This document shows positions 24,495 through 60,467 of a DNA stretch of 64,000 nucleotides, in pieces (within the stretch, counting starts at the first letter, position 1; each line of letters opens with the position of its first letter). Source of the DNA: Diphasiastrum complanatum. Lineage: Eukaryota > Streptophyta > Lycopodiopsida > Lycopodiales > Lycopodiaceae. The stretch covers positions 49,199,756 to 49,263,755 of the forward strand of contig CM055103.1 of the NCBI GenBank assembly GCA_029204225.1, written 5' to 3'. The notes below the pieces were generated by a model. It did not search any database. It saw only the letters and a program-made list of their open reading frames with translations, and was not told the origin of the DNA. The position numbers were made by a program, and so were the translations under genes.

Positions 24495-24506
24495 TGGTAT
24501 CAGAGC
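24495..24506 (+). other. Retrotransposon primer-binding site
   Basis: TGGTATCAGAGC abuts the LTR end CATAACA and matches the 3' end complement of plant initiator-methionine tRNA, the usual minus-strand primer of plant LTR retrotransposons. Confidence 0.88.
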
Positions 24507-28223: not shown

Positions 28224-28808
28224 TATTGAAAAATTAGAGGTGTAGCATAAGTGATATTGGATTGGTAGAGCACTATGGTAATCAAATCTCTGATATCAAA
28301 TCTGAAAGGGTGTAGTAGCAGTGGAGGTTGATAACAGATGGTTTGAGGATCGGAAGTGCAACAATTACAAGCAACAATCAAGATGAATAAAACAATAGGC
28401 ACAAAAATTGCTTCAGTTGATAATTGTTGAACTGATTGATTACATGCTTGATTGCTAGGTTAATCAGCCTTTATTTACATGTCTTATAGTTCAGTACTTT
28501 TGGATCTACTTAATTAATTAGAGTTGCCTTGTAATAGGTAGTTGTCTCTATAAGTAGTAAAATCTCTGTACAAGTAGGTGGACAGCTAGTGTTGTCTGAT
28601 AGTACATGGATCGATTTTTCCCTGATGACAAAGTCGAGTTAGTTGGTAGTTGATGAAAAGTCGATGAAGTCGGGTAAGTCGAGGAAGTCAAACAAGTCGA
28701 CAAAGTCGAGTGTTGATGAAGTTGGTGTTTGTCGATGAAGTCGGGTAAGTCGATGAAGTCGGGTGTTGATGAAGTCGATGGAGTCGATGTCGAGTAAGTC
28801 GAGTGTAG
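28224..28808 (-). repeat. 3' LTR of minus-strand Ty1/copia element, 5' truncated
   Basis: It matches the LTR at 30615 onward: AGAGGTGTAGCA, GATATTGGATTGGTAGAGCA and CAATCAAGATGAATAAAAC are shared in order, with substitutions and a roughly 85-bp gap. Inside it, units built on GTCGATGAAGTCGGGTAAGT recur between 28640 and 28805. Its U3 end is fused to integrase coding sequence at about 28808. Confidence 0.85.
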
Positions 28809-29376: not shown

Positions 29377-30600
29377 TCAGTTGATCAGAAGTTGATGTAT
29401 GAAGAGCTTGGCTATTTGTCGAATAGCGGTGACTAAGCTTGTAGAGATAGCCACATCGTCTACCAAAGGCGAAAACTTTCCTAGACTTGTCGAGTATGGT
29501 GTAGCCCTCTGTATCAAATTCGAGACCCTCTGACCAGAATCAATGATTTTTCTTATCAAAAGCAGATTCTTGGTAAGGTTAGGAACATGAAGAACATTGG
29601 ACAACAACTTTACATCACCTTTCTTGAATTCGACTTTGACTATTCCTTTACCTTCGATAGAATGAGATGAGTTGTCTTTAAAGTGCACAACTCTTGAGTG
29701 GGTGAATGCTTTGTTGTCCTGAAACCAGTGTCGATGGTGAGTCATGTGTTGAGTTGCTCTTGTTTTCAGATACCAAGAGTCGATATTCTGCTGCTCTCTA
29801 ACCTCGGTCATGAAGACTGCTTTATCTTCCTCTTGTTCCTGGATCAAGTGACTAGTTGTAGCAGCATTGGCTTGTTGTTGGACCTGCTTTTTCTTCTCGT
29901 TGTTGTACTTCAAAATTCGGTAGTCCTTGATGAGATGGCCAGTCCCTTATAGTATTTGCAGAATAGTTTCTGCATTGGCTGAAATGATGAAGATCATGAA
30001 GTTGATGGTGTGCTTGATACAAGCTACAGCATGTTGCTCCTCTTGTCAATGTAGTCTGACTTTGTAGATTTTTTGGATCTAAACTTCTGATTTTTCTTTG
30101 TGTTCATAGCTTGTGGATCCGATCCTGAGCCCGAAGAGGAAGCATTTCTTCTTATCTCCTCTTGTAGTAGCATCGAGATGATGAGGGAGATGCTGCTGGG
30201 TTGAAATAGCCATAACCCAAGTTTCATAGACATCAGGAAGACTCTATAATAAAGTCATTACTACATCGAAATCTTCAATGACTGAGTTGGTTGCAATCAT
30301 CTGCTCCATGAGATTTTTGAAAGTGTTGAGATGGCTTGAAACACTATCTGCTTCAGACATTCTTAACGTGAAGAACTTCTTCCTAAAATGAAGTTTGAAA
30401 GTAACATCCCTGATATCATAGAAAGTTGTTTGGATGTCCCATGCATCCTTAGAGGTCTGAGCAGCTCAAATGTGGCTGATTTGAAAGTCTTCGATAGAAA
30501 CAGCGATATCGAAATATTGTTGGCTGCACACTTGCTGAGATGATATCTTGGTAGATACAAAACTAATAACATGCAATAGAAATGCAAATTACTGAACCAC
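29377..30600 (-). pseudogene. Ty1/copia Gag and protease
   Basis: A gag frame from about 30590 carries FKLHFRKKFFTLRMSEADSV and HLNTFKNLMEQMI, typical of the UBN2/copia Gag. A disrupted knuckle region follows. Protease at 29913-29377 reads WYLKTRATQHMT, where WILDSGAS-HM is the norm, so the catalytic D is lost. It continues to LLSNVLHVPNLTKNLLLI, the conserved end of copia protease. Multiple stops lie between 30360 and 29930. Confidence 0.8.
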
Positions 30601-30614: not shown

Positions 30615-31390
30615 TGTCGAAAAATCAGAGGTGTAGCAGAAGTGATATTGGATTGGTAGAGCACTGTGGTAACCGGAGCTCTGATATCAAATATGAAATG
30701 GTGTAGTAGCAGCAGAAGTTGCTAACAGATGCTTTTAGGATCGGTAGTGCAACAGTTACCAGCAACAATCAAGATGAATAAAACATTAGCTATGCGCAAT
30801 AGAATGAAGCAGTAGTGGTGACAAAAACTTGCACTCTGATTGAATGAAAAATGAGTACAAGGGTGTGAAGCAGTGCGAGAGAGTAAGCACAAAAATTGAT
30901 TCAACCGATAATCGTTGAACTGATTGATTACATGCTTGATTTCTAGGTTAATCAGCCTTTATTTACATGTCTTACAGTTCAGTACTTTTAGATCTACTTA
31001 ATTAATTAGAGCCGCCTTGTAGTAGGTAGTCGTCTTTGTAAGTAGTAAAATCTCTGTACAAGTAGGTGGACTGTCAGCGTCATCTGACTATACATGGATC
31101 AACTTTTTCCTGATGACAAAGTTGAGTTAGTTGGTAGTTGATGAAAAGTCGATGAAATTGGGTAAGTCGACGAAGTTGAGTGTTGATGGAGTTGATGTGT
31201 GTCGATGAAGTCGGGTAAGTCGACGAAGTCGGGTGTTGATGAAGTGGTTTGTTGATGAAGTCGATGGAGTCGATGTCGAGTAAGTCGATGTGGATGGAGT
31301 CGAGTAAGTCGATGGAGTAAGTTGAGTACATACATGGAGAACTTGAAGTCGATGAAGTCGGACTTCAAACTTCGATGACTTCAAAGTCGA
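30615..31390 (-). repeat. 5' LTR of the minus-strand copia element with GTCGA subrepeats
   Basis: The LTR ends TTTTCGACA at 30615; its other boundary near 31390 is not sharp. Between 31140 and 31390 the unit GTCGATGAAGTCGGGTAAGT recurs with variation about ten times, giving frames rich in Ser-Thr-Leu/His-Arg-Leu that are not genes. Confidence 0.8.
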
Positions 31391-35162: not shown

Positions 35163-35257
35163 ATATGGTTGTGTGTTGTCAAATAGCTTTCTTCAAATCA
35201 GTAATAGATATATCCATAAAGTAGATGGTTGTGTGTTGTTACATACCTTTCTCCAGT
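35163..35257. repeat. Duplicated exon-3 end of the DUF3455 gene
   Basis: ATGGTTGTGTGTTGT occurs at 35165 and again at 35225. Each is followed by related sequences (CAAATAGCTTTCTTCAAATC and TACATACCTTTCTCCAG), so the exon end and its splice donor exist twice, the outer copy with a decayed donor. Confidence 0.65.
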
Positions 35258-36457
35258 AGAGCTTGTTGCTTGAAGCAAAGCCCAAGAAATGCTACTGATG
35301 TCAACCACACGACTTCTCACAACCTTTGCTGTCACAGTACTCTCTGGATAGAACGTCTCCCAAGTTGGCCTTCCTCCTTTTGGATCACTCTCTGACAAAA
35401 AGAAGTGTCTGCCTATTACCTCTTGACCTGGACCAGAGGACAGGGTTGCTGTTGCATCCTTCAAATACCAGGTTGATCCATTGTAGATGTAATTCTGATG
35501 TCCCTCTCCAAAGAAGGAAAACAAAGGCCTAGTTCCTGCAGGTGAACTGAGGGATGGGGAGAGCTGACGAGTGGATAGAGAGGTGAGTTGAGCCCAGAAG
35601 ACGTAAACGCTTTGATATGGAATTTTTGCTAATTCGCCATCTTTTGTGCATTCCTTTGCAGAGGGAGCCACGCCTCCTTTGTTAAAAATCCGCTGAATGT
35701 AAGAGACACGACTCAGGTTTCCGAAACCAGTAAGCCCAGTAGCTTCCAGTAGGAGAGAGTTGATGCTGTTGTTGTTAGATGGGATAGAAACCAGAACTTT
35801 GCCTGAACAAAAGATACGTATCTAATAAGAATATTTCGTAGTGCAGCAAGTTCATTCTTGATTACGATATATTGGTGACTAGTGTTTAGAGTTTTACGAA
35901 AGTAAACCTGTAACTGTGCTGTCAGGAGCAGTAGATGCGTTTGCTCCGGGAGCTGACGTTGAAGACCATGTTGCTTTCCCTCCTCCGGAATCTGGGTGGG
36001 GTAAAAAATAATGCAAACCTACTCTTTCAGCCAAAGAGGTTGCAGAAAATGTTATGGGAAAAAGATCAGCTTTGGCAGCAATTGATGCCCATGTGGGTTC
36101 ACCATTGGATGTGGTACAACGGTATATCTGGCTTCCTTTTCCATGGACTCGTCTAATTACACTGTCCAATACAAAGGAAATGTTAGCTTTCTTATCAAGT
36201 ATCAAGTTTCTAGACTATGCCCATCTCTTGCTTTGCAGTTTTTTTTCAGTATTTGTAATTCGATTGTCTGTAATAAACTATGATAGTCAACTTGATAGTT
36301 TGATTGAATTATATTTCTTAAAGCTGTTCAGAAATGTAAGAGGCACTGACTAGTTTCCAGCAGGAGGATCCAAGGATTGAGCAGCCGCTATGTGAAACGT
36401 CATGAATATCCCGAAGACAGATGCAGCCATGCATGTGATCAATATGGTACGCATCAT
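35247..36457 (-). CDS. Secreted protein with tandem DUF3455 domains, 3' exon missing
   Basis: Predicted exons on the minus strand are 36457-36351, 36161-35908 and 35802-35247. Donors are GTCAGT, GTTTAC and GTATGT, and the phases (2, 1, 2) all match. Exon 1 encodes a signal peptide (MMRTILITCMAASVFGIFM, ending HIAAAQS) and SLDPPAGN. Domain 1 then reads GSQIYRCTTSNGEPTW, GLHYFLPHPDSGGGKATW, SLLLEATGLTGFGNLSRVSY, IQRIFNKGGVAPSAKEC and YQSVYVFWAQL, a whole DUF3455 unit. Domain 2 restarts with SSPAGTRPLFSFFGEGHQNY, then VIGRHFFLSESDPKGGRPTW and SISWALLQATSSTGE, and stops at the exon 3 donor. The expected IQR/GG/YFW end of domain 2 is not found downstream, so the last exon is distant or lost. Read-through would add a stop at 35198. 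DUF3455 proteins are found in bacteria, fungi and plants; their function is not established. Confidence 0.8.
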
Positions 36458-38711: not shown

Positions 38712-38846
<135 letters not shown>

Positions 38847-39121
38847 GAAATCTACTATATTTATACTACATACCAGTTTGTTTTTCGAAACGTCACAAAA
38901 AAAAGACTTTTTCCTTATGATACTTTACCAACAAAAATGCCTTATTATGTTAACTTAGAAACATGGCCTCAAATAAAAAAGTTTTTTTGAAAAAAACCTC
39001 CTAAGTCTTTTGGTGGGAAACTTGGTTTCAAACGAACGGCTGTGATCAGTGCACATGATAGAGATTCAATCTAACGGTGAGCATCTTCTAATACCTGTTG
39101 CACCAAAGGGTGCTAGGTTTT

Positions 39122-39129
39122 CTATAAAA
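39122..39129 (+). promoter_or_regulatory. Possible TATA box followed by a polypyrimidine leader
   Basis: TATAAAAG is followed about 30 bp later by CTACAACCCTAAG and a long CT-rich tract, the usual look of a plant or LTR promoter and transcription start. No gene or LTR end could be attached to it. Confidence 0.35.
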
Positions 39130-40556
39130 GGGAAGATCTCTACAACCCTAAGTTTCACTCTTCTTGCTCTCTCCTTCTCTCTCTCTTGCTTTTGCTCTCT
39201 TGGTTGGCTTCTCTACTGCTACCATCTCTCCTTGGAAGTGAGGAGACTTGTGAATGCTTGTGGAAGAGTATTCGGGTGGAAGACATTGCATGCTAAGAAA
39301 GCTATCATTTGTGTAGTTGGATGATCGTGTGTTGCTAAGGATATTCGTTTGCTTGCTGAAAAGGGAGTATGCTCACTACATACTGTGATTGTATTAGATT
39401 GATACTATAAATTTGCTTCTATTAAACACGATTGGAGCATTTACGTTAGGGCACTGCCTCAAAGAGTAGTTGTTAACATCACTACAGGTTTGCTATGCAA
39501 CTCTTCACATTTTCATTATTCTTTAGACAACGAACTGTCACTGAAATACTTGAATGCAATGGTTCATACACGTCTGATTACCAGCGGAATATGTTAGCTG
39601 AAAATCCGCACTTCAATATGCGGTTTCTATGGATTAAACCATAGTAGAAATGCGTTGGTGGTCACCATCTGAAATGCGATGGACCACCTTCGCTTGCCAC
39701 CTTTTTTGAATAAGTATTTACAAGTGGTCACCATCTGAGATGCAATAGACCTTCATCATTGTCTACTATCTCAGAAAATTAGAATTCTATAAAGCTATTG
39801 ATGATGCATTGTATTGGCTCTACATAATACTTTTTAGCAGCCCATGTTTCAATACCTACTTTTTATAGAAAAGGAAGGATTTTATATGTATTTGCACATA
39901 AACCTAACAAGCAATCGCTGGATATAACCAACGAGATATATTGTGAGGCCTTGATAATGGTATCTACTTTAATGCAATGAATATGTAAGAGCTCTACTGT
40001 TGTCCAGATTTGCTAACACTCAGACTATGAACTGTCGAAGGAATGACTCTATGATAATCTGAGACACGAAATACATATGGTTATAATAAATCACATGTGA
40101 TTGAGTTCAACACCATTGCAAGTTTACTATACGACTTGAAAGAGGTTGCACTACCATTAATCCATTACTTTTGGTTTTTGATTCGGTAGTACGTAAACAG
40201 AGTTTTGCTTGAAGCTGTGGAACATGGGTAGCTCACAAGAAATTACTTCACCTCGCATTCAGGTATGAAGTTCTATGAAGGCATATGGAAGGTAATATCT
40301 CCCAACACTACAATGTTGTGCATAAATACGTATGAAACATTATGAATTACATAAATCGAAAAGTTTTTTTGAAGTTATGATCTGAAAGGATGCTTACATT
40401 CCATGCTTTTGAATCTTATTAAGTTTGGTCGTCTTTACCAAGTTGGTTTTTCTAAAAAAAAACCTTAAAGTGCAGCCTGTATGAGTAAGCTAGGGACGTT
40501 TGCAGAGTCTGATTTTGACGCGCTTGAACGGCATGGATTTGCCCAAGCCATAAGGT

Positions 40557-42617
40557 GCTTGGACTCCCAAATGTTTTGCATGGAAGGTCCATGGGGCTAG
40601 TATGGCACGGATCTACCCTAGTACCTAGCACTTGGCCAAAATCATATCTCTTTTCATTTGTGTATTGCAAGATAGCTTCTTACGTGTATATTTTTTATGT
40701 GAGCTTAATACATTCTTTTTGCTCTTATACTGATTAGTATGGCATCTGCCCTGATACAGTTTTCGTGAAAGGGCAGAATGTGTTGCTAATTATGAAATGC
40801 ATGATAGGGAAGATTGGATGTATTATTTGTTATTGCAATCAAGCTGATAAAGTAGTGAATCTAGTTTCGGACATGGATAACAACTGATTCTTAGCTATGC
40901 CACCTGTCTTCCTCACGTAATTAACTTGTGCAATTTTGTTGTGTGGGACGGTGGCAAGTAACAGTTGGGTGTCCTAAAACTTGCTTCACTTTTTGGTACT
41001 CTATATTGTAAGACTTTACACAGCTATATTTTAACTTGTTATGCTATAAATTGAAGGGTTCAAATGGTTTGGTCTTGACTTGTCAAGAGGGACTATGTGA
41101 TGTTCAGTTATTCTCTCAAAGCATATTTTTAAGATGGCAACCCAACTACCTTTTGGTCGGGGTAGTACCAAACCTTTGCCTTTACTTATATTTTATGGTT
41201 AACAAGGTCTGTTTTATGATGTGGTCCACAGGATGGTTCCATGATGCTGTTACTCTTGGTTATGGGGAACCCCTTCCTCCTCCTAACCCTTTTGTTCAGA
41301 CTATCATTTGTTGCATGAAGAAAGTTGTTGATGTTCATAAACTCATTACTTCTTATGATAAAGCTACTTGTGATGCTGCTGGACCTGATGATAAGATCCT
41401 TGTTGACTTGATGACTACTATGGATTGAATGAATAAATATTTGGATTTCATTAAGAAGAAGAAAACGTTAAGCATGGTTGAAAAAATCTATATGGATCTC
41501 TCTGACTATGTTGATCGTATTGTTGTTGAAAAAAGTTTCTACAATTTACATATTCGGAAGATATTTGCATGTTTGGAAAAAGAAAATGGTGACCTTTATG
41601 TTGATACTCCTACCCTTACTAAACCTCCTACCTCACCTCATCCTTTGATCTTTACTGAAGACCTTGATGATGATAGTGCATCTCAGTTGGAATCTTTCTC
41701 TCAAGAAATCTGCGAAGTAGACAACCAGTCTGCCTTTGAATTCTGCCAATCCAAAAGTTGCCAAGCACCTTTGGTACCTAATCGTGCGAGTGAATTTAAA
41801 TCTGCCAAGTCTACCTATAAGCTCTGGAGCCTTCCTTCTGTTAGTTTTTTGGCACCCATTTCTGCTGAACTCTGGATTGCTCTTACACATCTTACTGAAG
41901 TTGCAGTTCAATTCTGCAAGCTTGTTTCTTTGCATAAGAATCCCTCCTTTAATACACCTATTGCATTTGATACTGTCATCAAGATGAGAAGATTTGAACC
42001 TACTAGATGTCCTTCTGATCAAACATGGGCTAGAACTAGAGGCCACTTTGAGAACAGATGCAATAAGATGAACCTACATCAACCTAGAATCTAGAACTGG
42101 AAAAGACCCTTCTTTAAATGCAGATGTGGCGACAAATGTAAAGCCAATTCTTCTATCATTTGGTTTGATCACGCTATCTGGTATATGATGAACAACCTTG
42201 CCAAATTCTTCTCTGGTGCATCTGTACAGAACCAACTCAATGTCTTCTTTCTTTGGCTTCATAAGCCTACTAGAGATGTTGTCAAATCCCACCTTGCCTT
42301 TATGTACATCAGACAACATATGACTGAAGCCGCCATTGAACTCTCCCTTAACCCTACGGCAAGCTGCTTGCTCACCTTGGCGATGTTGAGAATATTCCAA
42401 AAGTTGAACGCCTTCTTAAAAAGCCTAGCTTCTCTACCTTACAGGATAAATACTTCCAGAATACAAGCAAAAAAATAGGTCCCATCAATTTGTATAGTCC
42501 AAGTTCAGTCATCACAAGCAGTGGCAACAAGAAGAGGAAATATTTCCCAAGTAAAGGCAATGAGGGACAGAGCAGTGGTGGAAAAGAGGATCTTCCTATT
42601 AAAAAGCTGAACTTTCT
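40557..42617 (+). mobile_element. Dispersed repeat, copy 1, carrying an unidentified ORF
   Basis: Direct-orientation similarity to 58166-60120 is continuous, from a shared ATGGCACGGATCTACCCTAG block to a shared GAAAAAGCTGAACTTT-like end. Conservation covers noncoding sequence (40600-41000) as well as the ORF. No terminal inverted repeats, LTRs or target duplications are visible, so the type of element is unknown. Confidence 0.75.
41036..42600 (+). pseudogene. Unidentified repeat ORF, copy 1 (at least 480 codons)
   Basis: The reading frame runs through YGEPLPPPNPFVQTIICCM, KKVVDVHKLITSYDKATCD, IRKIFACLEKENGDL, LIFTEDLDDDSASQLESFSQ, FEFCQSKSCQAPLVPNR, KLWSLPSV, RFEPTRCPSDQTWARTRGH, WKRPFFKCRCGDKCKANSS, IIWFDHAIWYMMNNLAKFF, FFLWLHKPTRDVVKSHLAF and YIRQHMTEAAIELSLNP. 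It ends in a basic tail, GNKKRKYFPSKGNEGQSS, which looks like a nuclear-localisation signal. Two tryptophan codons of copy 2 are stops here (TGA at 41426, TAG at 42092), and there is a frameshift near 42360. A CXCX3C cluster may bind metal. I recognise no transposase, RT, integrase or recombinase motif. The order of conserved blocks and low divergence at codon level show it once coded for protein. Confidence 0.65.
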
Positions 42618-42860
42618 GAGACCCTTAATGGTGTCCAACCCTAACCAAACTTCATGAAAGCCTTAGGACAACATCTTTACACCTCTGAAAATTTTCACGC
42701 AAAATATTAGCTAAGAATTTTATGAATATCACCAAAAACATTGAAAAGACCACCAAAAAGCCATGTTTTTTTACTATTTTTCCACCATTTTTGCAATTTC
42801 TTGTGGATCAAACCCACATGAAAGTGAATATAGGCCACATCTACTATAATTCAATTACAT
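42618..42860. other. Spacer, no gene recognised
   Basis: Short AT-rich stretch between the repeat copy and the copia LTR. The LTR start could be within it. Confidence 0.35.
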
Positions 42861-43213
42861 TCATATAGCCCATTGGTAGAATAAGTAAGCCCAAGTTTCT
42901 CTCACAATTCATGACTTTCCGTGTTCAGCAGTGATTTTGAGTTTTTTACTATCTTTGTGATAGTATGCATGTGTGCCAGTTTGACGGTACATGTAGTGTA
43001 AGTTGGGACACACATCCCGTAACGGGGACCGAACTGCCATGCAGTGATACCCCACAAAAATTAGACTGTGTATATATATCTTTCAGTCTCTTTTGTAAAT
43101 ATAGTTCAGAAGTGTTCTCTTGGGTTTGTGTGTGATCTCTCTTTACTGTTTATCTGATTGATGTCAAATTGCTTGCAAATTAGCTAACTATACTGCCTGT
43201 AAGATCCTTGACA
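42861..43213 (+). repeat. Putative 5' LTR (3' part) of a plus-strand copia element
   Basis: The LTR ends GATCCTTGACA at 43213, directly before a primer-binding site. A TGTGTATATATATC sequence at 43068 is TATA-like, followed by CTTTCAGTCTC and a pyrimidine-rich region, consistent with the R/U5 end. The left boundary is not visible. Confidence 0.6.
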
Positions 43214-43225
43214 TGGTATCAGAGC
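43214..43225 (+). other. Primer-binding site of the copia element
   Basis: TGGTATCAGAGC follows the LTR CA terminus immediately and matches initiator-methionine tRNA. Confidence 0.9.
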
Positions 43226-44496
43226 CTGGGAGTGGCGCAGTTCGATGTTAGCAGGAAGCCGAATTTTGATAAAATTCAAAAAACCGTTTACGGTTAGTCA
43301 AGCAAGCAATTGTTTGCAGGTGCAGTTGAATTCAAGGCTTCAGAATAAGCTATTGGCTTGATCCAGGAGCAAAACTGAAAATTGCTAAATTTTCAAGTTA
43401 ATTGGAGCAAACAGAGTGTTGCTGAGTAGAACAGCTTGTTTGCATTCAACTGTGCATCAATTGTGAAGCCGAAAATCTCAAGAGAGTTCTTGCAGTAGGG
43501 CGACCTCAGTGGTGTAGGAGACTGCCAGAAAAATCTCAAAAAAGGGTTGAGTAAATCTCAAGAAAGCTCCATCCTTTCTACAACTAGGGTTTTCATGTAC
43601 AAAACCGTGGATCTTTCTCCACACATACTATGGTTCAGTGCTGTGAATGCATGGAGAGGGGCGCCCTAGCAGGTAGAATGTGCCCACAAATGGCCGTGAG
43701 CACCCGTGGAGTAATCTGAGCGCTGAATCAGCTGGTAGGGAGGCATGGAGGAAAAATCTTGGTGGCAGCCGTAGCTGGCCAGGTGAGGAGAAGAAGTCGT
43801 GAAGAGAGAATGGTCGTGGAGGAGAACTCGCGCGCAGCAAGGAGGAGGTCGACTTAGTGTAAATAAGGCTATAGCGGCTTCAAGAGTGTTGTTCGGCGCA
43901 CATGAGCAAGTTTGACGGATAAGATCAATCTCCACAAGGATCGAAGGATAAGATCAATTTGATCTGGGCCACAGAATGAAAACCCATCGTTGGATATGGG
44001 TGAAGTGGACCCTGAAAAGGTTTGAAAGGCAAAATGGCCTTCAATTTCATTAAAAATTTTCAAGTTGAGAGGGACCCTGAAGTTCAAATTTGTTTGAAAA
44101 AGGAATTTGCTTCAAAGTGAAGAAACAGTGTGTTTTTTTCAAGAGCCTTTAACTTTTGGTCTAAAGCTCTGTTTAAGGCCGTCCAAAAGCCAAAATCCTC
44201 CAAATTAAGGGCAGAAAAGGACTGTACTCTACAAGTACGGTACTTGAAAACAGATGGATTTCCGCGGAGAAAGTGTTTGGAGTGCGCCAAAAGTCTTTTC
44301 ACCATTCCAGTGGGCAAGTAGTTGGGAGTTGGTGATGAAGGGCATTTCGGAGGACGACACCGATTTGGCGACAAAGCGGCGGGAGGTCCTGAAACTTTTT
44401 TGGTCAGACCTTAAAGTTGACTTTTAAAAGTCTAAATTGCTCTATAAGCTTGTCATTGAGCGTCATTAGGGCAGTATAGGAGCAATTTTTAGCAAA
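43226..44496 (+). other. Untranslated leader of the copia element
   Basis: About 1.3 kb separates the primer site from the gag ATG. Open frames in it lie on the opposite strand and look accidental. The leader is unusually long for copia. Confidence 0.5.
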
Positions 44497-45060
44497 ATGG
44501 CAGGATTGGGAGAATCCGTGCTTGGAGAAGCTAGTAAATTGGACGGGGTATCCAATTATAGCATTTAAAAATTCAAAATGAAAAGTTTTTTCATGGAAAA
44601 GGAGCTGTGGGACATTGTCACTGGGGTGGAACAACGGCCAGCTACAACTCCAGCCGATATTTGTGCATTTGACAAAAGGGCACAGAAGGCCTTATCCTTG
44701 ATAAACTCGTCAGTGAAGGATCATGTTATTGCCCACATCAGTGAAGCTGTATCAACAAGAAGTGCTTGGGATGCACTCAAAACGCAGTTTCAAACGGCGA
44801 ACCCCTCTCAAATGATGTTTTTGAGGACCAAACTCATAAGTGTTCGCATGGAGGAGAATGAGGGCATAGGTTCCTATTTCACACGAATAAAGGAGTTACG
44901 AGACCAGTTGACAGCTATTGGAGAACCAATAAGAGATGTTGAGCTGGCTCACATAGCTATAAATGGCCTACCCGAAAATTTTCAAATGTTTGCAAGTGGC
45001 ATTGCTTCGAGGGAGAGACTACCAACATTTCAATTTCACTATGGTGCCTCCAGCCATTAA
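44497..45060 (+). pseudogene. Ty1/copia Gag (UBN2-type), truncated
   Basis: Starting at ATG 44497 it reads MAGLGESVLGEASKLDGVSN, YSI, then a TAA at 44566 exactly where the family has W (YSIWK). After the stop the frame stays open: FKMKSFFMEKELWDIVTGVE, KALSLINSSVKDHVIAHISE, AWDALKTQFQTANPSQMM, LISVRMEENEGIGSYFTRIK and HIAINGLPENFQMFASG. These are the Gag capsid helices. The match ends near 45030 and unrelated sequence follows, so knuckle, protease, integrase and RT are missing. Confidence 0.88.
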
Positions 45061-46783
45061 TGGTGTCTGGTATGTGCAACAAGGAATAAATCTTCTACAA
45101 TCTAAAGTAGACTCATTGAACCAAGGTGGATATGTCTTGGAGACATCTACGTCATGCTCCCATAATGTTTCATAGCAAAAAACAAGACTAGAGACCTCCA
45201 AGAACCTTCCAATGTCATAGCCAATCCAACGCCAGAACGTGGACAAATGGGACATAGATCTGGCGTGTCAAAATTTGCTAGAGATTGAATGGAAAAGGGA
45301 CTATCACTAAAGGGGCATGTACTAGAGGTGCTTAAAGTACCTTCAAAACATAAGGAGTTATATATCCTTAAGATTTTTGAAAGCATTTGAACAAGTGTAA
45401 CTTATCAAGTCACAATTGGTAATGAGCCATCGTGGACATTTGCAAATTTCTCCTTGAATATGACCATGAAAAAATACATACCTTGCAAGCATATGTATTT
45501 TGCTTACTTGAATGTCAAGGGGTTGGATGTAAATGAAATTATGTTCATGCATTGACCTGTCCTGACACTAGAAGATCTTTTTCATAAAAGGGTTTGGCCT
45601 AGGACATCCTAAAGCTAGCTCTTCAAATGACCATCAATGGATTTAACAGCATTTGTATACAAAACAAGCCAAATAGGTAATATTGCAAGTTACCTATTTG
45701 AAGATTCCTTAAAAGAGCTTATTTTTATTATTATTTTAGGAAGGAAAAAATCAAAATTTTACACCGCAACTATAGGCCAATTAAAAATGTTTTGTTAAAA
45801 AACACATAAATATTGACACTTTGAAAATTTTCATGAAAGGAGAAAAAAAATTAACAGTAATCTCACAAACAAGTTTCAAAAAATTAGCCTTGAATCTAGC
45901 AAAATCATGACAATTTGTATTGTAAATTTTCAACCATACCAAAATAATATGTTAATTGTGAAATATTTATTTCAATTTCTTTTTTGATAAAGTGAAAACA
46001 TCCAATAGTTAAATACTAAAGTAACCATGTCTTGGGGTCAATTATGTCATAATCATTCCATGCAAACTTATCAACATAGAATACCTTAAAATAGATTTGA
46101 GTTTTGAATTTGTATCCAAAAATGTCATTTCACTACAACATAAATAAGTTTTAGTCAAATCTTGGTAAACTTATAGTTTAAATGGAATCTTTTATCAAAG
46201 TCAAAACACAAGATCGTGTATCTTTTACCCAATATGGTGATATAAACAATTAATGATAAAAAATATTCATTACTTTGAAGACCAAATATATTCGAAAAAA
46301 CGTATAGTAGCAATAAATACATATGTGAGAAAGTGTTACTAATGCAATAGACTTGTTGAATTTCCAAAAGTTCTAATCTATGTGGATGAAATTATACAAA
46401 AATATATGTTTTATGAATATTGACATATCTATGTGATGAAAAATGTAAAGGACTCTTAAAGTTTTAAGATGCAATGATAGTCTATCACTGCTAACGAAAA
46501 CCTATTCAACAAAAGAATTACATTTGCATATCATGTACCTCAAAAATAGCTGGGGGAAAAAAAGTGTATTGGACTTGAAACCCCATGAACATTCAGTGCC
46601 AAGTTCACATTTGTAAACACCAAAATCTAAATATGGACAATAAAACAATCGTAAAATGAAATGAAATACCTATTGTTACAACTAAAAAATGACACCCAAA
46701 CATCTACCAAAAAAAAAAGATTTGCTTTCAAAATATATAATGATTCAGACAACGTTTTTTCCAAAAGAAAAGTTTATTTCAAT
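45061..46783. other. No gene recognised
   Basis: The sequence becomes strongly AT-rich after the gag break. No further copia motifs, no 3' LTR and no host gene are visible before the AT repeat at 46784. Confidence 0.45.
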
Positions 46784-46801
46784 TATATATATATATATAT
46801 A
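46784..46801. repeat. AT microsatellite at the left edge of the GGTACC element
   Basis: About nine AT units directly precede the CACAGTACC end. Confidence 0.9.
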
Positions 46802-46946
46802 TCACAGTACCTCGTGGTACCGCCGATACGGTACCGCCCTGAGATCCGCGGTACCAGGGCGGTACCTTTTTTAGTATTTTTTAATTTTTTCAATATATTT
46901 AATAGTTTTTTTTGTCTATTACTTACCAAAAAAGGACAAAAAAATG

Positions 46947-46975
<29 letters not shown>
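46947..46975. repeat. Poly(A) run, 29 bp
   Basis: Uninterrupted A run inside the GGTACC element, close to two shorter A runs; it could be slippage-prone or a relic of retroposition. Confidence 0.85.
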
Positions 46976-46977
<2 letters not shown>

Positions 46978-47028
46978 AGTACTGGGTGTAAAAAAAAAGG
47001 GTACAGTACATGGTGCAGGGGACTGGTG

Positions 47029-47205
47029 CAGTGACACATGGGCATTGTGGGTGAGCAGACCATGGGGCCAATGAGAGACCAACACAGGGGGGGGGAGCAT
47101 CACATGGGGGCAAGTATAGAGGCACATGGGCACTGTGGGTGAGCAGACCATGGGGCCAATGGGAGACCAACACATGGGGGGAGCATCACATGGGGACAGA
47201 TACAG
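47029..47205. repeat. Duplicated block of about 85-90 bp
   Basis: Two neighbouring copies share CACATGGGCA, GTGGGTGAGCAGACCATGGG, GCCAATG, GAGACCAACACA and GAGCATCACATGGGG in order. The first begins at about 47034 and the second at about 47123. Confidence 0.85.
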
Positions 47206-47435
47206 AGGCACATGGATGGATGATGGGGATCCACATGGCCGATCAAGCTATGGGGATAAATAGGCACTCACAATGCCATTGTGGTTGGCATTTTCAGAGG
47301 CTATGAGAGAGCTAGTGATAGACAGTGAGAGAGCAAGCGAGAGCCGGTGACAGGCTGTGAGAGGCTGTTTGAGAGCCAGGGTGCTGTGAGAGGGTGTTCA
47401 AGGACCAGGGTGTTGAGAGGAGAAGGTCGATCGAA

Positions 47436-47717
47436 ATGGCAGAGTGCATACCACCAAAGCCCAAGGGCGAAGCCAGGAGGAAGCTTGAGGAAGATATCCG
47501 AAGGCACAACGAGAGACATCGAAAGCAAGAGGCAGATATCCGAGAGATGCTGCGACAGACTCGACAGAGAAATCCGGAACCAGAGCCACCCGCCCCCGCT
47601 GTGGATCATGTCCCTGCTGTCGAGCTGGATCTGGATGAGCAGATCGGAATGAATTTCACACGACGGCAGCTCATCATGGTCAGGGAAAGGGCGGCTAGAC
47701 GTCGGGCTAACCAGTAG
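47436..47717 (+). CDS. Small charged helical protein (93 aa), unknown function
   Basis: The ATG at 47436 opens MAECIPPKPKGEARRKLEED, then IRRHNERHRKQEADIREMLR, a strongly charged helix likely to coil. A proline-rich linker (PEPEPPAPAVD) and LDLDEQIGMNFTRRQLIMV follow, ending RERAARRRANQ. The first ATG in frame lies within a longer frame that begins near 47394, but that extension has a CTG-type start only, so 47436 is preferred. A TAAATA at 47256 may be a TATA element. No family is recognised; the basic ends suggest nucleic-acid binding. It faces the AT-hook gene at 48319 in a convergent arrangement inside the same element. Confidence 0.5.
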   Translation: MAECIPPKPKGEARRKLEEDIRRHNERHRKQEADIREMLRQTRQRNPEPEPPAPAVDHVPAVELDLDEQIGMNFTRRQLIMVRERAARRRANQ

Positions 47718-48318
47718 GTTGCCCGGCTAACCGGGAGGCAGAGCAAGAGCGACAAAACAATGCACCAGACGAGGGCTAGGAGTCGGTGGAGGATCAGTGA
47801 GGGATGTTTAGAATAGATAAGGTCCAGCCGTATGTGACGGACTGTTGCTATGTAGTTTTCGGCAGTTTATGGTGCAGCAAATAACTAGATGGCTGCTTAA
47901 AAAATGACAGTATATGTGATGTTATCTTGATACAACGGTTGAATATATACATAGTTGTTTTTTGTGCAACGCGAGCCCAGTCATGTAAGATGCAATGTCT
48001 GTAATTTTTTGAAATGCAGATGTATTACATGTGTTTATGAAATGTCATTTGGAGTGTAGGGGTGATTGTTGTGCTCATGATGTAGGTGCATATATGTGAA
48101 GCTAGCATTCACTTCAAACAAAATTAGATGAAAATAAGATTCACACACGCAATAGAATTCAACATAAAATAAAACATCACATGTACAGAGTGACATACGC
48201 ACAATGTGCAGCAAATAATGTAGGCCAAACACTGTATATAATGTGAAAAATCATCTGAGTACAATGGTAGACCGTCTGCTAGAGACAAACTACTGAAACT
48301 AAAACAATAGAGCCACAA
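47718..48318. other. Space between the two convergent genes
   Basis: The 600-bp stretch holds the 3' ends of both genes. It is AT-rich after 47800 and shows no further frame. Confidence 0.45.
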
Positions 48319-48815
48319 TCAATGCTCTGGCTCTGACTCAGACAAATGCTCTGGAGACAACTCAGGCCCCCGAGCTGACTCTCGCAGCCAATATCTTTGC
48401 CTGTCTGGAACTGGCATGGGCTGTGTATCCGAGGGGGAAGACTCGTCATCCTCATCCTCCCAATCAGCCTCTGCATCAGCCCCCAAGCAGGCCAAACCAA
48501 CAACACCTGCTCCAACTGGCTGTGATACTGCACTTCTCCCTGTACCTGGAGCCTTGCGTGGTCGTCCTCTCCTCCCTGACAGTTTCTGTGCCTTGCCTTT
48601 CTTGTTCGGTGCACCCTTGGGCCTTCTTGGTCTCTTGCGGACAAGAGGAGCTGTCAATGCCTCGTCACCCCCATGCAAATCACCTGGCTGGCTAGGCTGG
48701 GCCCAAGCTGAGGCCGATTGGGATAGGGAAGCAAAAGAAGGAACTCCCTGTGCAACTAAGCGAGGAGGATGAGCTCGTGGAGTGTGTGCTCGTGGAAAAT
48801 ATTAAATATTAATTA
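48319..48815 (-). CDS. AT-hook protein, probable (about 165 codons open)
   Basis: The minus frame is open from about 48815 to the TGA-side stop at 48319. It reads PPRLVAQGVPSFASLSQSAS, then HGGDEALTAPLVRKRPRRPK, GAPNKKGKAQKLSGRRGRPR, KAPG, a hydrophobic bridge (VGAGVVGLACLG) and an acidic end (WEDEDDESSPSD ... ELSPEHLSESEPEH). KRPRRPKG and GRRGRPRK are AT-hook type motifs (core RGRP or PRRP), which bind the minor groove of AT-rich DNA; that fits the TA-rich surroundings. No ATG occurs before the hooks, so either the start is in a missing upstream exon (a TTGCACAG acceptor lies before GGAGTTCC at about 48745) or the gene is broken. Confidence 0.5.
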
Positions 48816-48881
48816 TATTAATATATTATGGTACCGCGGTACCAGTTCGGTCCCGCGGTACCGGGATCCACGGGACCTATG

Positions 48882-48886
<5 letters not shown>

Positions 48887-48958
<72 letters not shown>
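48887..48958. repeat. TA microsatellite (about 72 bp)
   Basis: Uninterrupted TA repeats at the right border of the GGTACC element. Confidence 0.97.
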
Positions 48959-48960
<2 letters not shown>

Positions 48961-49424
48961 GAAAAACATGTTGTCGCGAAAGACTGTCTTTGCTTAAGCT
49001 CCAGAACGATCCCAAAAATCGATCTCAGAAAACGTCTTGAGCTTTAGGTTGGGGATTTCTCCTCTTCCCCTCAATAATCCCTTATGTGCTCCCCCTCTCT
49101 CATGTCCTATTCTCCCTACTCTCTTCTATACTCCCCTCATCCAACCTCCATCAAGCCTTACATGATCTCGAGGATCGATCCATGAGATCGTCTCTTCTCC
49201 CATGCCCACAGATTTCTAAAAACGGCTTGAGGCTTTGGGTTGAGAATTAATCCTTTTGATCCCTCCATAATCCCTTGTATGAGATATATCTTAGGACTCT
49301 TTTGGCCATCTTCTAATGTGACACAAGAGGACATGTAGGAAGATATTGAAGATTTTAGAGTTTTGGAGGTCAATGCAGTTGGTAGGCGACGACTTTTGGT
49401 GACAAGAGATAACGGAACGATGTT
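48959..49424. repeat. Diverged repeated segment before the Penelope-like element
   Basis: A phrase containing GTCTTGAGCTTTAGGTTGGG and CAATAATCCCTTATGTG (49030-49087) recurs as GGCTTGAGGCTTTGGGTTGAG and CATAATCCCTTGTATG (49222-49281), about 190 bp later. It may be the 5' untranslated region of the element that follows. Confidence 0.6.
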
Positions 49425-51310
49425 TTGCATTTACGTTACTACTTTGAGAGTATAAATGTTAAAAAACTTTATTTTGAGACTTTACTTCATATATTTGGTT
49501 ACATTGATGACATCTTTGAGCAGATTGTGTTTGGCTGGACCTTTTTTCCGCATTTGAAACATGAATGGTATAAGCCCTTTCAAGTCTTTTGTGATTTCAA
49601 TACTGATAATATTCCACCCTGTACGTGCTCAGTTTTTATACATTTTAAAGAAGTTATTGACAACAACATTGGACATGTTATTTCTATAAATACTGGAATT
49701 ATCTATAGTAAACTCTTAAGGAACGACCTGAACAAGGGACTTAATCATATTTCGCTACGTCAGTCTAATATTAATGAGGTCGCTTTGGAACTTTATCATG
49801 GATGGTTAGAATTAGCTACTTTCTTACCCTGCTGCATCATGATTTTATTATGGAACATGCTCTAATCTGCAAGCTTATTGTGACAAACTTTTTAAAGAAG
49901 ACTAGATGATTGCATGGTAAAAATTTCACAAAGATGGATTTCAAGAATGTTATTGATGAACGTGACTGAATCACTACCTTTCTTTACGTGGATGGAATAG
50001 ATATCTGGTCCGGATTTTGCTCCTTTTCCAGACACTGAAAACAATAACATTGATAATGCTTTGACGGTTACTAAGCATACTCTTTCTAACATATTACCAG
50101 ATGACCTTCTCGGGATAGAAGAATTACCCTTTCTTCTCTGCACCTGTAAAGCACATAAAAATACTCTCAGATGGATTACAAACGCACATGACTGCTACTT
50201 TTCAAAGGTGGCCGCATTTCTTTCTGGAGCTCTTGGTATTCTGTCTCCACTCCTCATGAGGGGGCAGGCCTCAAGGCACTTTCATACCAGAGTTACCTAA
50301 ATGTGAATACCAACCTATTCTTGTAGTGTGACTCATCCACTGATTTCTATGTTAATGTGCCAAATAAGATCACTTCTCTGTGGTCCAACTAATATCTCTA
50401 AGTGTTATGAAAACATCCCTCTTAATGGCCCGGATGGACTTAAGACTATTATATGAAAAATGATTTTGTATGCTGTCAAATTTTGCAAAAATGAAAATCT
50501 TGTCTGTAAATGGAATTCTAATTCTAATGATTGTAAGTGGAGATGGATTAGCAAACAAACTGATAAGTGGACTCTTATAGACAAACTTTTATTGTGCCAA
50601 TGGAATGATTTGTTGATTGACCATTGCGTTGTCAGACTCAGAAACAAAGCCTGGAGGCAGGTTTGCGGTATACCTATGGGCTTTGCATGTTCTCCCACTT
50701 CATGTAACTGATACTTGTCATTTTTAAATTATAGTTTATGAAAAGACTTGCCAAACTTGGACAGGTTGAATATTTACGGGCATTCAAGAATACCTTTCGA
50801 TATATAGATGACATTTGTTTTATTGATAATCCGGTTGCACTTTCTTTCTTGGATAAAGAACAACCATGTACCATTGATAATGCTAAATGGATTTATCCTT
50901 TAGAGCATTTGACCATCAAAAGCGAGGAGACTTATGGCAATACAATAAACTTTTTGAATATTCCTACTGCCTTTTATTCTGAGTCTGGCATTTTTTCTAT
51001 GAGAGTTCGATAAAAGAAGGGAACTACCTTTTCTTTTTTTCCAGTTCATTCACGTACCATCCAATAGACCGATCTTTAACTCTTATAAGATTGTCATTGC
51101 ACAAATTATTGCTGCTATGTATTGTTGTAGCGATCAAGCTGCTTTTATTAAAGAAGTCGATGACATTGTTTTGGCATTCCAAAAAAATGGCTTTATGAAA
51201 GGAAGACTCTACGGAATCGTCAACAAGATTTTCTTACACAATACGTTCCCTGGTCTTACGGTCACACTAACTATTAATGCGAACTTTCTCTTGGTGGGCA
51301 ATTAGCACTC
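49425..51310 (+). pseudogene. Penelope-like element (PLE) reverse transcriptase, no GIY-YIG domain seen
   Basis: Fragments of one protein follow in order. The N-terminus has PPCTCSVFIHFKEVID, IGHVISINTGIIYSKLLRND and LNKGLNHISLRQSN (49618-49790). The finger region has LPFLLCTCKAHKNTLRWITN (50122-50180). Motif A reads TNISKCYENIPLNGPDG (50388), where family members have D, so a catalytic residue is altered. Motif B reads QVCGIPMGFACSPTSCN (50658-50708) and motif C FRYIDDICFID (50795-50827). The thumb includes EVDDIVLAFQKNGFMKGRLY. The K-HK-P finger block and the GIPMG/YIDD pair fit PLE rather than LINE or LTR RT. A GIY-YIG endonuclease normally follows; the sequence instead reaches a CT microsatellite within 70 bp. 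Many stops and shifts are present. Confidence 0.75.
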
Positions 51311-51376
51311 CATCTTAGGGGTGCTAACTGCCCCCTGAGATACCTTGTTGACTGTGGTATGGTTGGTGGGTTCTCT

Positions 51377-51528
<152 letters not shown>

Positions 51529-51653
51529 TCCATGTCCTGTATAAGGGAATCGGAATACTTCCTAACGTAGATAGCCGGTCACTCCAGGTGTATATGGTTA
51601 TTAGTTATGCCTCGTCATTCCGGGCTTGGCTTGTGAAGTAATTAATAATCATA

Positions 51654-52008
51654 TGAGGGCCCAGACCTATAATTGGACATAGGAGCACATGCATAGTGAA
51701 TGACTGCTTTAATGCAAGAATATGAGGTCAATAGCTCAATATAGGTTGCATGGGGATCCTAGGAGAATATTCTCTCTCTCATGAGGAGAATATGTCCATT
51801 GGAAACTCGCCCAGCCTCCGATTGGAAATTCAGTTTCTTGAGCCAATTTCTCCTTCTCTCTCTCTTAGGTTCTTCACTATGGCTTGGGGGCTAGGTCCAA
51901 GATGAAACTCCAGGAGGGATCTAGGTTTGGTTAAGTGGTTTTGCTCCACAGATGTCTTTTGGTTGTTTTGCAACAGGATCTAGTTAGCTTCATTTGGTGA
52001 TCCTTACA
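51654..52008 (+). repeat. Putative LTR of an otherwise unseen retrotransposon
   Basis: A segment ending GATCCTTACA (52008) precedes a primer-type site by one base. It contains TATAATTGG, pyrimidine tracts and possible TG start at 51654. The boundaries are uncertain and no second copy was found. Confidence 0.4.
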
Positions 52009-52009
52009 G

Positions 52010-52021
52010 TGGTACCAGAGC
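52010..52021 (+). other. Primer-binding site (TGGTACCAGAGC)
   Basis: TGGTACCAGAGC is the initiator-methionine tRNA complement with one change (C for T) and lies one base after the putative LTR end. Confidence 0.7.
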
Positions 52022-58165: not shown

Positions 58166-60120
58166 GCGGATTCCCTAACAAGTTACATGGGAAGTCCGTG
58201 GGGCTAGCATGGCACGGATCTACCCTAGTACCCGACACTATGTTCAACATCATGTCTCTTTGTATGCGTGCATGGATTAATAGCATTATTACGTGTTTGA
58301 ATTGCTTTATGAGCTGAATACATTCTCTTTGCTCTAACACTGATCAGTATGGCCTCTGCCCTGATACGGTTTTGATTCAAGGGCAGAATGTATTGCTATT
58401 TATAAGATGTATGGTTGGGAAGATGGGACGAATGTTTTGTTATTGCATTCAAGCTGATAAAGTAGCGAATCTTGTTTCGGAAATGGATAACAACTGATGC
58501 TCAACTATGACACCCGTCTCCCTCACTTAACTAATTCGTGCAGTTTTGTTTTGTGGGATGGTGGCAGGTAACAACTGGGTGTCCTAAAATTTGCTTCAAT
58601 TTTTGGTACTCTGTATTGTAAGACTTTATACAGCTTTATTTTAACCTGTTATGTTATAAATTGAAGGGTTCAAAGGGTTTGGTCTTGACTTGTCAAGAGG
58701 GACTACTGTTACTCTCTCAAAGCATCTTTTTAAGATGCCAACCTGACTACCTTACCTTTACCTTTACTTGTATTTTATGGCTAACAAGGTCTGTTTTAAG
58801 ATGTAGTCCATAGGATGGTTCCATGATGTTGTTACTCTTGGTTATGGGGAGCCCCTTCCTCCTCCTAACCCTTTTGTTCAAACTGTCATTTGTTGCATGA
58901 AGAAAGTTGTTGATGTTCACAAACTCATTACTTCTTATGATAAGGCTACTTGTGATGCGATTGGACCTGATGATAAGATCTTTTGCCTGGTTGACTTAAT
59001 GATTACTATGGATTGGATCAAACTATATATGGATTTCAAAGTTTCTGCAATTTACATATTCGAAAGATATTTGCCTGTTTGGAAAAAGAAAATGGTGACC
59101 TTTCTATTGATGCCCCTAGCCTCATTGAACCTCCTACCTCATCGCATCTTCTAATCTTTATTGAAGACCTTGATGATGATAGTGCATCACAGTTGAAATC
59201 TTTTTCGCAAAAAATCTGTGAAGTAGACAACCAGTCGGCCTTTGAATTATGCCAATCCAAAAGTTGCCACGTACCCTTGGTACCCAATCGCACTATTGAG
59301 TTTAAATCTGCCAAGTCCGCCTTTAAACTCTGGAGCCTTCCTTCCGTTAATTTTTTTGGCACCCATTTCTGTTGAGCTCTGGATTGTCCTTACGCATCTT
59401 ACTGAAGCTGAAATTCAGTCCTGCAAGCTTGCTTCTTTGCATAAGAATCCCTCTTTTGTTAAACCTATTGCATTTGATACCGTTATCAAGATGAGCAAAT
59501 TTGAACCTACAAGATGTCCTTCTGAGCAAACCTGGGCTAGAACTAGAGGCCACTCTGAGACCGACTTCAATATAATAGACCTACATCAAGCCAGAATCTG
59601 GAACTGGAAAAGACCCTTCTTTAAGTGCAAATGTGGTGACAAATGTAAAATCAATTCTTCTATCATTTGGTTTGATCTCGCTATCTGGTATATGATGAAC
59701 AATCTTGCAAAATTCTTCCCTGATGCATCTTCAGAACCAAATCAATGCCTTCTTTCTTTGGCTTCATAAGCTTGCTAGAGATGTTGTCAAATCCCACCTT
59801 GCTTTTATGTACATCAGACAACATATGATTGAAGCCGCCATTGAATTATCCCTTAACCCTATGGCCAAGCTGCTTGCTCACCTTGGCGATGCTGAGAATA
59901 TACGAGAGATCGAATGCCTTCTTAAAAAAAAGGTTCTCTACCTTACATGATAAATACTTCCTAAATACAAGCAGAAAAACAGGTTCCTTCAATTTAAATA
60001 ATCCAAGCTCAGTCATCACACGCAGTGGCAACAAGAAGAGGAAGTACTTCCCAAGTAGAGGCAATGAGGGGCAAAGCAGTAGTGGAAAATGGGATCTTCC
60101 TATCAGAAAGCTGAACTTTT
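58166..60120 (+). mobile_element. Dispersed repeat, copy 2, carrying the unidentified ORF
   Basis: This copy matches 40557-42617 in the same orientation over its whole length, including the upstream noncoding part (CTGATCAGTATGGC, TGATAAAGTAG, ATGGATAACAACTGA). It lacks about 90 bp present in copy 1 near 41440-41530. Its right end, after AGCTGAACTTTTACC, abuts the copia relic. No terminal repeats were found. Confidence 0.75.
58800..60118 (+). pseudogene. Unidentified repeat ORF, copy 2
   Basis: The blocks are the same as in copy 1: LGYGEPLPPPNPFVQTVIC, KKVVDVHKLITSYDKATCD, IRKIFACLEKENGDL, IEDLDDDSASQLKSFSQ, FELCQSKSCHVPLVPNR, KLWSLPSV, FEPTRCPSEQTWARTRGH, IWNWKRPFFKCKCGDKCK, WFDLAIWYMMNNLAKFF, FFLWLHKLARDVVKSHLAF, YIRQHMIEAAIELSLNP, and AKLLAHLGDAENIREIECLL, with a GNKKRKYFPS tail. 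Frameshifts occur near 59035, 59350 and 59740. This copy keeps the tryptophans that are stops in copy 1, so the two together show the ancestral frame was open throughout. No family recognised. Confidence 0.65.
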
Positions 60121-60467
60121 ACCGTGATTGATTGCATCATCATTCTTAAAGATGGAACAAATTCCATGCTTAAATTGTACATCAAGGCCATTATCCACAC
60201 TCAACAAATTTTTATTGATAGATGATACATAAAGGACATTTTCAAGATTCATGTTTTTGGATGATCCCAAGTACAAAGAATAGTACCTACACCACTTATT
60301 CTACACTCTTGATCACTAGTTGTAAAAATAGATTTTTTAACATCATTATAAGAGAATAGAGTGAAAAAGTAGTCCTTTTGGAAAGTCATGTGAGAACTAG
60401 CCCCACTATCAATCCACCAAGCTTCACTTGTGTTGGATTTGGATGATGGTATTGAGATGGATGCCAT
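60121..60467 (-). pseudogene. Ty1/copia protease
   Basis: The minus frame 60467-60249 reads SEAWWIDSGASSHMT with an intact catalytic DSG, then FTTSDQECRISGVGTILC. The continuation around 60200 reads SINKNLLSVDN, the conserved end of the domain. Coding similarity stops at about 60125, against the repeat copy, so integrase and RT are lost. Confidence 0.82.

What the first reader, a model, noticed from the sequence alone, without database searches (positions are those of the whole stretch)
40557..42617. Two-copy repeat with a conserved ORF of unknown family (first copy)
A frame of at least 480 codons, open in the ancestor, is shared with 58166-60120. It has a CXCX3C cluster in a W-rich context (WKRPFFKCRCGDKCK), a long acidic patch and a basic KKRK tail, but no recognised transposase, RT, integrase or virus motif. 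Upstream noncoding sequence is conserved too. This is the strongest candidate for an undescribed mobile or endogenous-virus-like family here.
Basis: partly seen in the sequence, partly recalled or inferred. Interest (0 to 1): 0.8.

Follow-up and report, generated by a model that had tools for sequence, protein, structure and literature searches.

The report
Old two-gene jumping element
The repeated stretch is part of an old, broken copy of a many-copy retrotransposon in a large, probably plant, genome; it carries an unfamiliar protein gene in front of a reverse transcriptase that looks Penelope-like, so it is a mobile element and not, on this evidence, a virus or a host gene.

Summary
In detail: 40576-42615 and 58183-60119 are 83-88% identical and share a decayed frame of about 460 codons. 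Its setting was missed. The unnamed 1.74 Gb host genome has many copies: 2593 first-look DNA candidates, 40 scored. In one read copy this ORF (ORF1) is open, 470 aa. Where both were hit, a second ORF with a reverse transcriptase follows within 0.5-1.6 kb (11 of 74 ORF1 hits; both lists capped). In copy A that half lies at 49334-51373, beyond a 6.7 kb block holding a Copia gag. Tandem or partial tandem copies occur in 4 of 5 loci checked. Eight of nine 3' tails and nine of nine unit starts adjoin CT/CA repeats. ORF1 has homologues in public data (E 1e-48 to 1e-42), shows past purifying selection, and matches no known family convincingly. Best reading: a two-ORF Penelope-like retroelement, nearest (from memory) the CxC-bearing Naiad/Chlamys group, with no GIY-YIG endonuclease detected. 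No named Penelope-like sequence could be compared. A new variant of a known kind; no sign of a virus.

The parts
38714..38844 (+). (CT)65 microsatellite at the likely 5' boundary of copy A
   Evidence: TRF; in 9 of 9 matched places the family's unit start follows a CT or CA repeat (the window's own start did not reach the cut-off in that test and is placed by L033 and L031)
38845..39143 (+). 5' end of copy A's unit (pseudo-LTR region)
   Evidence: 38757-39143 matches L033 7790-8161 at 85.5% and 38721-39186 matches L031 2061-2524 at 70.7%
39144..40100 (.). about 0.96 kb that the forward matches leave out (only L034, inverted, reaches 39570); probably an insertion or diverged sequence (inference)
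   Evidence: gap between element matches
40101..41233 (+). 5' region of copy A (UTR / pseudo-LTR)
   Evidence: matches L033 from 3395; that region is directly repeated in L033 (3459-4411 and 8162-9115)
41234..42358 (+). ORF1 of copy A, main frame, stops at 41426 and 42092
   Evidence: open counterpart L025:4953-6362:+
42361..42618 (+). ORF1 of copy A, C-terminal part in the shifted frame (basic KKRK region)
   Evidence: similarity to other copies ends at 42615
42616..49333 (.). block that splits copy A; holds a Copia gag ORF at 44578-45057; no pair of LTRs found
   Evidence: L033 5912 and 5931 map to 42615 and 49334; Retrotran_gag_2 E 5.7e-30; no LTR pair
49425..49769 (+). N-terminal part of ORF2 with the CxC motif (PPCTC ... 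GHVIS ... LNHIS)
   Evidence: 77% identical to the L037 ORF2 N-terminus, E 1.1e-55
49734..51209 (+). ORF2 reverse transcriptase, heavily decayed
   Evidence: tblastn of the L021 RT pieces: 49734-50258, 50291-50386, 50388-51209, 50714-51040
51276..51373 (+). 3' tail with a strong RNA hairpin
   Evidence: 87.9% to the L030 tail; 51290-51385 folds at -40 kcal/mol, z -4.3
51372..51525 (+). (TC)n microsatellite at the 3' boundary of copy A
   Evidence: TRF
58167..60132 (+). copy B: fragment with 5' region and ORF1 only
   Evidence: matches L033 3854-4749 and 4831-5925

Best explanation
The repeat is the ORF1-bearing part of an old, dispersed retrotransposon with two ORFs. ORF1 (470-600 aa) has an N-terminal helical domain (predicted), a conserved W/Cys core (WN-x-x-RP ... 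CxC ... WFDHaiWYm-NN ... FF) and a basic or RG-rich tail. It is most likely an RNA/nucleic-acid-binding partner of the reverse transcriptase (inferred). ORF2 carries a conserved N-terminal domain, a CxC motif and a reverse transcriptase that looks Penelope-like. The element would be transcribed from its 5' repeat, its RNA bound by both proteins, and copied by target-primed reverse transcription from a 3' end made of a hairpin and short tail at a (CT)n array, leaving tandem or partly tandem copies. Shown: gene order, motifs, tandem structure, microsatellite junctions, predicted hairpin, past selection. Inferred: RNA binding by ORF1, priming at microsatellites, membership in the Penelope-like class. 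Copy A looks like a long, dead copy split later by Copia-bearing sequence; copy B is a fragment.
For: Many copies: DNA query 43 matches, 2593 first-look candidates, 40 scored; ORF1 homologue P0013 74 matches, 3319 candidates, 74 scored; RT homologue P0003 83 matches, 5337 candidates, 82 scored. RT found near ORF1 by tblastn in 23 of 32 distinct places. Of 74 ORF1 hits, 11 have an RT hit downstream on the same strand (ten at 0.5-0.8 kb, one at 1.6 kb), 0.005 expected; both lists are capped. RT frame open, stop to stop, over 571 aa in L022 and 698 aa in L041. RT relatives P0001-P0005 E 7e-57 to 4e-35, joined to four own-genome RTs at 100/99. CxC in ORF2 of diverged copies. Direct repeats in 4 of 5 loci. 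CT/CA repeats at 8 of 9 tails and 9 of 9 unit starts, query loci counted. ORF1 dN/dS 0.16-0.26 in all 14 pairs with dS above 0.7. ORF1 homologues P0011-P0014.
Against: No named Penelope-like or telomerase sequence is in the tree and the key paper is not held, so the class rests on motifs and structure, partly recalled. RVT_1 matches of this RT clade stay below Pfam's cut-off. PDB telomerase matches are not significant (E 1.7-2.3); the best PDB match is an RNA-directed DNA polymerase, 8bgj, at E 0.008. No GIY-YIG or hammerhead match (5, 96). Nine of 32 places showed no RT; five are short loci (one of them copy A's own) but four (L025, L026, L032, L039) were read over 10 kb. So the copy with ORF1 open (L025) has no RT found in its locus, and the one with ORF2 open (L022) has a broken ORF1; none of the 11 pairs is free of stops in both. 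Seven closer ORF1 pairs have dN/dS 0.31-0.98, as expected for dead copies. ORF1's CxC reads CDY in the diverged L041. ORF1's role is untested.
Confidence: 0.78

Rival explanations
1. A sharper version: it is an ordinary two-ORF, endonuclease-lacking Penelope-like element of the Athena/Coprina type, and ORF1 is the known first ORF of that type.
For: A review passage says PLEs have either one ORF with RT and GIY-YIG or two ORFs lacking the endonuclease, typically 4-6 kb (PMC6431247, passages seen). EN(-)PLEs are listed for Selaginella and conifers (PMC9033089, passages seen). The L030 unit is about 6 kb with two ORFs and no endonuclease found.
Against: That type is described as telomere-associated (PMC12477314, passages seen); none of loci L001-L040 holds two TTTAGGG units in a row, and hits lie on C1-C20, C22 and C23. 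CxC and microsatellite junctions fit, from memory, the other group.
Confidence: 0.25
2. Another sharper version: a Chlamys- or Naiad-type Penelope-like element in the strict sense, whose N-terminal GIY-YIG endonuclease is present but too diverged to detect.
For: CxC before the RT, microsatellite junctions and tandem copies match the group's description as recalled.
Against: No GIY-YIG match in ORF1 or ORF2; by eye none in the stretch before CxC. The genome-wide PF01541 search did not complete.
Confidence: 0.3
3. The two copies are pseudogenes of a host gene duplicated with its introns.
For: Upstream sequence is conserved with the ORF; a 49-codon upstream frame differs at 7, 3 and 12 of 50 positions 1, 2, 3; copy A's region has a recent partial duplicate about 0.8 Mb away.
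Against: Dispersed copies, constant ORF1-RT order in the 11 pairs found, tails ending at microsatellites.
Confidence: 0.02
4. It is an endogenous virus-like family.
Against: No related locus in 5 scans of viral contigs, no phage match for the RT, no BFVD fold match at E 0.001 or better for ORF1; the linked gene is a retroelement-like RT.
Confidence: 0.02

Closest known systems
Naiad/Chlamys group of Penelope-like elements (Craig et al. 2021, doi 10.1093/molbev/msab225; features recalled, paper not held, seen only as a reference in PMC9033089)
   Same: CxC motif just before the RT, a long stretch between RT motifs A and B, tandem copies, CT repeats at the junctions
   Different: No GIY-YIG endonuclease detected; a separate ORF1 of unknown family lies upstream of the CxC-RT ORF. 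No sequence of the group was compared
EN(-) Penelope-like elements (Athena, Coprina; telomere-associated)
   Same: Two ORFs, no endonuclease detected, similar size; reported from Selaginella and conifers (PMC6431247, PMC9033089, passages seen)
   Different: Interspersed, at CT repeats and not at telomeric repeats in the loci read; relation of ORF1 and RT untested
Canonical Penelope/Poseidon elements with C-terminal GIY-YIG (PMC11167929, PMC3846280, passages seen)
   Same: Head-to-tail or partial tandem copies and pseudo-LTRs
   Different: No C-terminal endonuclease found, no hammerhead match in the Rfam scans, ORF1 present
Plant LINE-1 elements (general knowledge)
   Same: Two ORFs, basic ORF1, retrotransposition
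   Different: Pseudo-LTR-like tandem structure; no APE endonuclease match in Pfam. The RT was not placed against a set of LINE RTs; it shows no BLASTP match to the window's own probable LINE fragment (E 0.73) but does match P0009 (E 4e-20)

Membership tests
Retroelement (any) | Encodes a reverse transcriptase with motifs A, B and C | tested here: met
   DIAKCYEN, GIPMGFACSP, FRYIDD in L021/L022; protein search E 7e-57; RVT_1 E 0.00024, below Pfam's cut-off
Penelope-like elements | Tandem or partial tandem copies forming pseudo-LTRs | tested here: met
   4 of 5 loci self-compared (not L032), 89.6-94.2% over 0.96-2.2 kb
Penelope-like elements | RT falls in the clade sister to telomerase RT | tested here: inconclusive
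   Tree has no named PLE or telomerase; PDB profile hits to telomerase at E 1.7-2.3
Naiad/Chlamys (N-terminal EN) PLE | CxC motif domain directly before the RT (recalled) | tested here: met
   PPCTC, PPCMC or LTCTC, then GHV/NHV and LNHI in diverged copies and window 49425-49769; lost in some decayed copies, e.g. L006, L017
Naiad/Chlamys (N-terminal EN) PLE | N-terminal GIY-YIG endonuclease | tested here: inconclusive
   No Pfam match in the ORF1 and ORF2 copies scanned; genome-wide PF01541 search not answered
Naiad/Chlamys (N-terminal EN) PLE | Insertion bias for microsatellites (recalled) | tested here: inconclusive
   CT/CA repeats at 8 of 9 tails and 9 of 9 unit starts, but no empty site was examined, so the repeat may belong to the element
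Naiad/Chlamys (N-terminal EN) PLE | Insertion in fingers domain between motifs A and B (recalled) | tested here: inconclusive
   About 83 residues between A and B in L021 against about 62 in P0009 (own count); no reference compared
EN(-) PLE (Athena/Coprina) | Telomere association | tested here: not met
   No run of two or more telomeric repeats in loci L001-L040; dispersed positions
EN(-) PLE (Athena/Coprina) | Two ORFs without endonuclease | tested here: met
   Two ORFs; no endonuclease in the ORFs scanned by Pfam
Host gene duplication | Copies explained by shared host flanks, with no linked RT | tested here: not met

The most novel reading that the evidence does not exclude
A lineage of Penelope-like retroelements has lost its GIY-YIG endonuclease and carries a separate ORF1 protein of unknown fold, with relatives in other public data sets. 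That protein either cuts or selects microsatellite DNA in its place, so that target choice moved to a new kind of protein.
Probability: 0.15. Interest if true: 0.75.

Novelty: new variant of a known kind. Interest (0 to 1): 0.5.

Why it matters
Penelope-like elements are described as patchy in plants (PMC9033089, passages seen), yet this genome has thousands of first-look candidates for one such lineage. It pairs a CxC-RT ORF with a conserved, uncharacterised ORF1 that has homologues in public sequence data. If no endonuclease is present, it offers a case of how an RT perhaps related to telomerase can colonise internal microsatellites. The ORF1 family could help to name unassigned repeats. It also shows how later insertions can hide the RT half of an element.

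Full report
Observation. Two stretches, 40576-42615 and 58183-60119, are 83-88% identical. In copy A a frame from 41234 to 42358, with two stops, continues after a frame shift in 42361-42618. Between A and B the third codon position changes most in both frames, while the region upstream shows no such bias.

Copies in the genome. The window lies in an unnamed 1.74 Gb assembly. A DNA search with 41200-42620 gave 43 matches; 2593 places passed the first look, 40 were scored. The ORF1 homologue P0013 gave 74 matches (3319 candidates, 74 scored); the RT homologue P0003 gave 83 (5337 candidates, 82 scored). The tool calls such counts lower bounds; candidates are not confirmed copies. Of the matched stretches, 17 of 74 (ORF1) and 12 of 83 (RT) hold no stop; many are partial. 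Hits lie on C1-C20, C22, C23 and on small contigs. Twenty 10 kb stretches were read and twenty of 4.1-4.4 kb; eight places are in both sets, so there are 32 distinct places, some of which may be assembly duplicates.

What lies downstream. L021 and L022 are 99.1% identical over 6.6 kb. Their ORF1 is followed by a second ORF with RT motifs DIAKCYEN, GIPMGFACSP, FRYIDD and FDKRRELPF; L022 keeps 571 codons open. RT pieces were found by tblastn in 23 of the 32 places. The nine misses are L001 (copy A, whose RT lies beyond the locus), L002, L016, L018, L020, and the 10 kb loci L025, L026, L032 and L039. L025, which has ORF1 open, is thus one of the copies without RT. Independently, 11 of the 74 ORF1 hits have an RT hit downstream on the same strand (ten at 0.5-0.8 kb, one at 1.6 kb) against 0.005 expected; no pair within 9 kb lay in another order or orientation. 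None of these pairs is free of stops in both ORFs.

Copy A in the window. L033 5912 and 5931 map to 42615 and 49334. The halves of copy A are thus 40101-42615 and 49334 to about 51373, split by 6.7 kb that hold a Copia gag (Retrotran_gag_2, E 5.7e-30) but no detectable LTR pair. RT pieces at 49734-51209 carry many stops. The 5' part reaches back to the (CT)n at 38714-38844, with a gap in the forward matches at 39144-40100. The 3' end is a hairpin (z -4.3) followed by (TC)n at 51372-51525. Copy B (58167-60132) is a fragment.

Structure of the family. Self-comparison of five loci showed direct repeats of 0.96-2.2 kb at 89.6-94.2% in L029, L030, L031 and L033, and not in L032. The tail of L030 matched at nine places in the 40 loci and the window, itself included; eight run into CT repeats, the shorter match in L022 does not. 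The unit start taken from L030 matched at nine places, itself included, each preceded directly or within a few bases by a CT or CA repeat; the window's start was below that cut-off. No telomeric repeat runs were seen in L001-L040. No Rfam family matched in the window or five loci.

ORF1. A search with one piece found nothing; the profile of 14 copies found four proteins of 489-596 aa, E 1.2e-48 to 9.6e-42, 27-28% identity over 79-97%. Eight aligned sequences share invariant C301, C303, W315, D317, H318, W321, N325 and N326 in L025 numbering, among others; the diverged L041 has CDY in place of CxC. The public members and L041 have RG-rich tails. None matches a known family convincingly. dN/dS is 0.16-0.26 in the 14 pairs with dS above 0.7 and 0.31-0.98 in the seven closer pairs, which fits masters under selection and decaying copies. 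The second structure model has a confident helical N-terminal region and moderate confidence around the core, without a convincing structural relative.

ORF2. Before the RT there is a conserved stretch ending in a CxC motif (PPCTC or LTCTC), then GHV or NHV and LNHI, in L037, L041 and the window's 49425-49769; some decayed copies have lost a cysteine. This resembles the CxC linker of Naiad and Chlamys elements as I recall it; the paper is not held. Four own-genome RTs group with P0001-P0005 at 100/99, apart from P0006-P0010, where long branches make the order unsure. The RT matches P0009 (E 4e-20) but not the window's own probable LINE fragment (E 0.73); no set of LINE RTs was compared. ORF1's stop is followed closely by ORF2 in another frame; in L041 the ORF2 frame overlaps the end of ORF1. 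How ORF2 is started is not resolved.

Literature (passages seen, not whole papers). PLEs are arranged in tandem with pseudo-LTRs (PMC11167929; PMC3846280); PLEs have one ORF with RT and GIY-YIG, or two ORFs without the endonuclease, 4-6 kb (PMC6431247); plant PLEs are patchy, listed for Selaginella and conifers (PMC9033089), and telomere-associated in Selaginella (PMC12477314). Eight full-text searches, of which I saw the listings, showed no title on such an ORF1; only open-licence papers are held and the key papers could not be read, so priority cannot be judged.

Judgement. A retroelement with an RT: about 0.97. Penelope-like: about 0.8. Nearest to the CxC group: about 0.65. ORF1 as a nucleic-acid-binding partner of the RT: about 0.6, inferred from its basic or RG-rich tail and its position. 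The first two rivals are sharper versions of the main reading, not alternatives to it. The copies in this window are dead.

Noticed in passing
window 41288-44125 and 51399-52898: L002 (C12:50.03 Mb, minus) joins a 99.3% copy of 41288-44125 to an inverted 99.9% copy of 51399-52898, so a recent rearranged duplication (or an assembly artefact) lies about 0.8 Mb away on the same contig.
   Followed up: partly
window 17779-18357: Fragment of another reverse transcriptase (RVT_1 E 3e-19), probably a LINE.
   Followed up: no
window 21483-22145 (-): Integrase fragment, probably Gypsy-type (Integrase_H2C2 E 7.6e-11).
   Followed up: no
window 29380-29913 (-): Polyprotein fragment, probably Copia-type (Pol_BBD E 1.5e-22).
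   Followed up: no
window 35201-35671 (-): ORF matching DUF3455 (E 7.5e-08), perhaps a host gene or a piece of one.
   Followed up: no
window 20276-20594 and 24180-24500: Inverted repeat of 321 bases at 96% identity, 3.6 kb apart.
   Followed up: no
window 28228-28802 and 30619-31288: Direct repeat at 86-89% containing AAGTCGATG-type tandem units.
   Followed up: no
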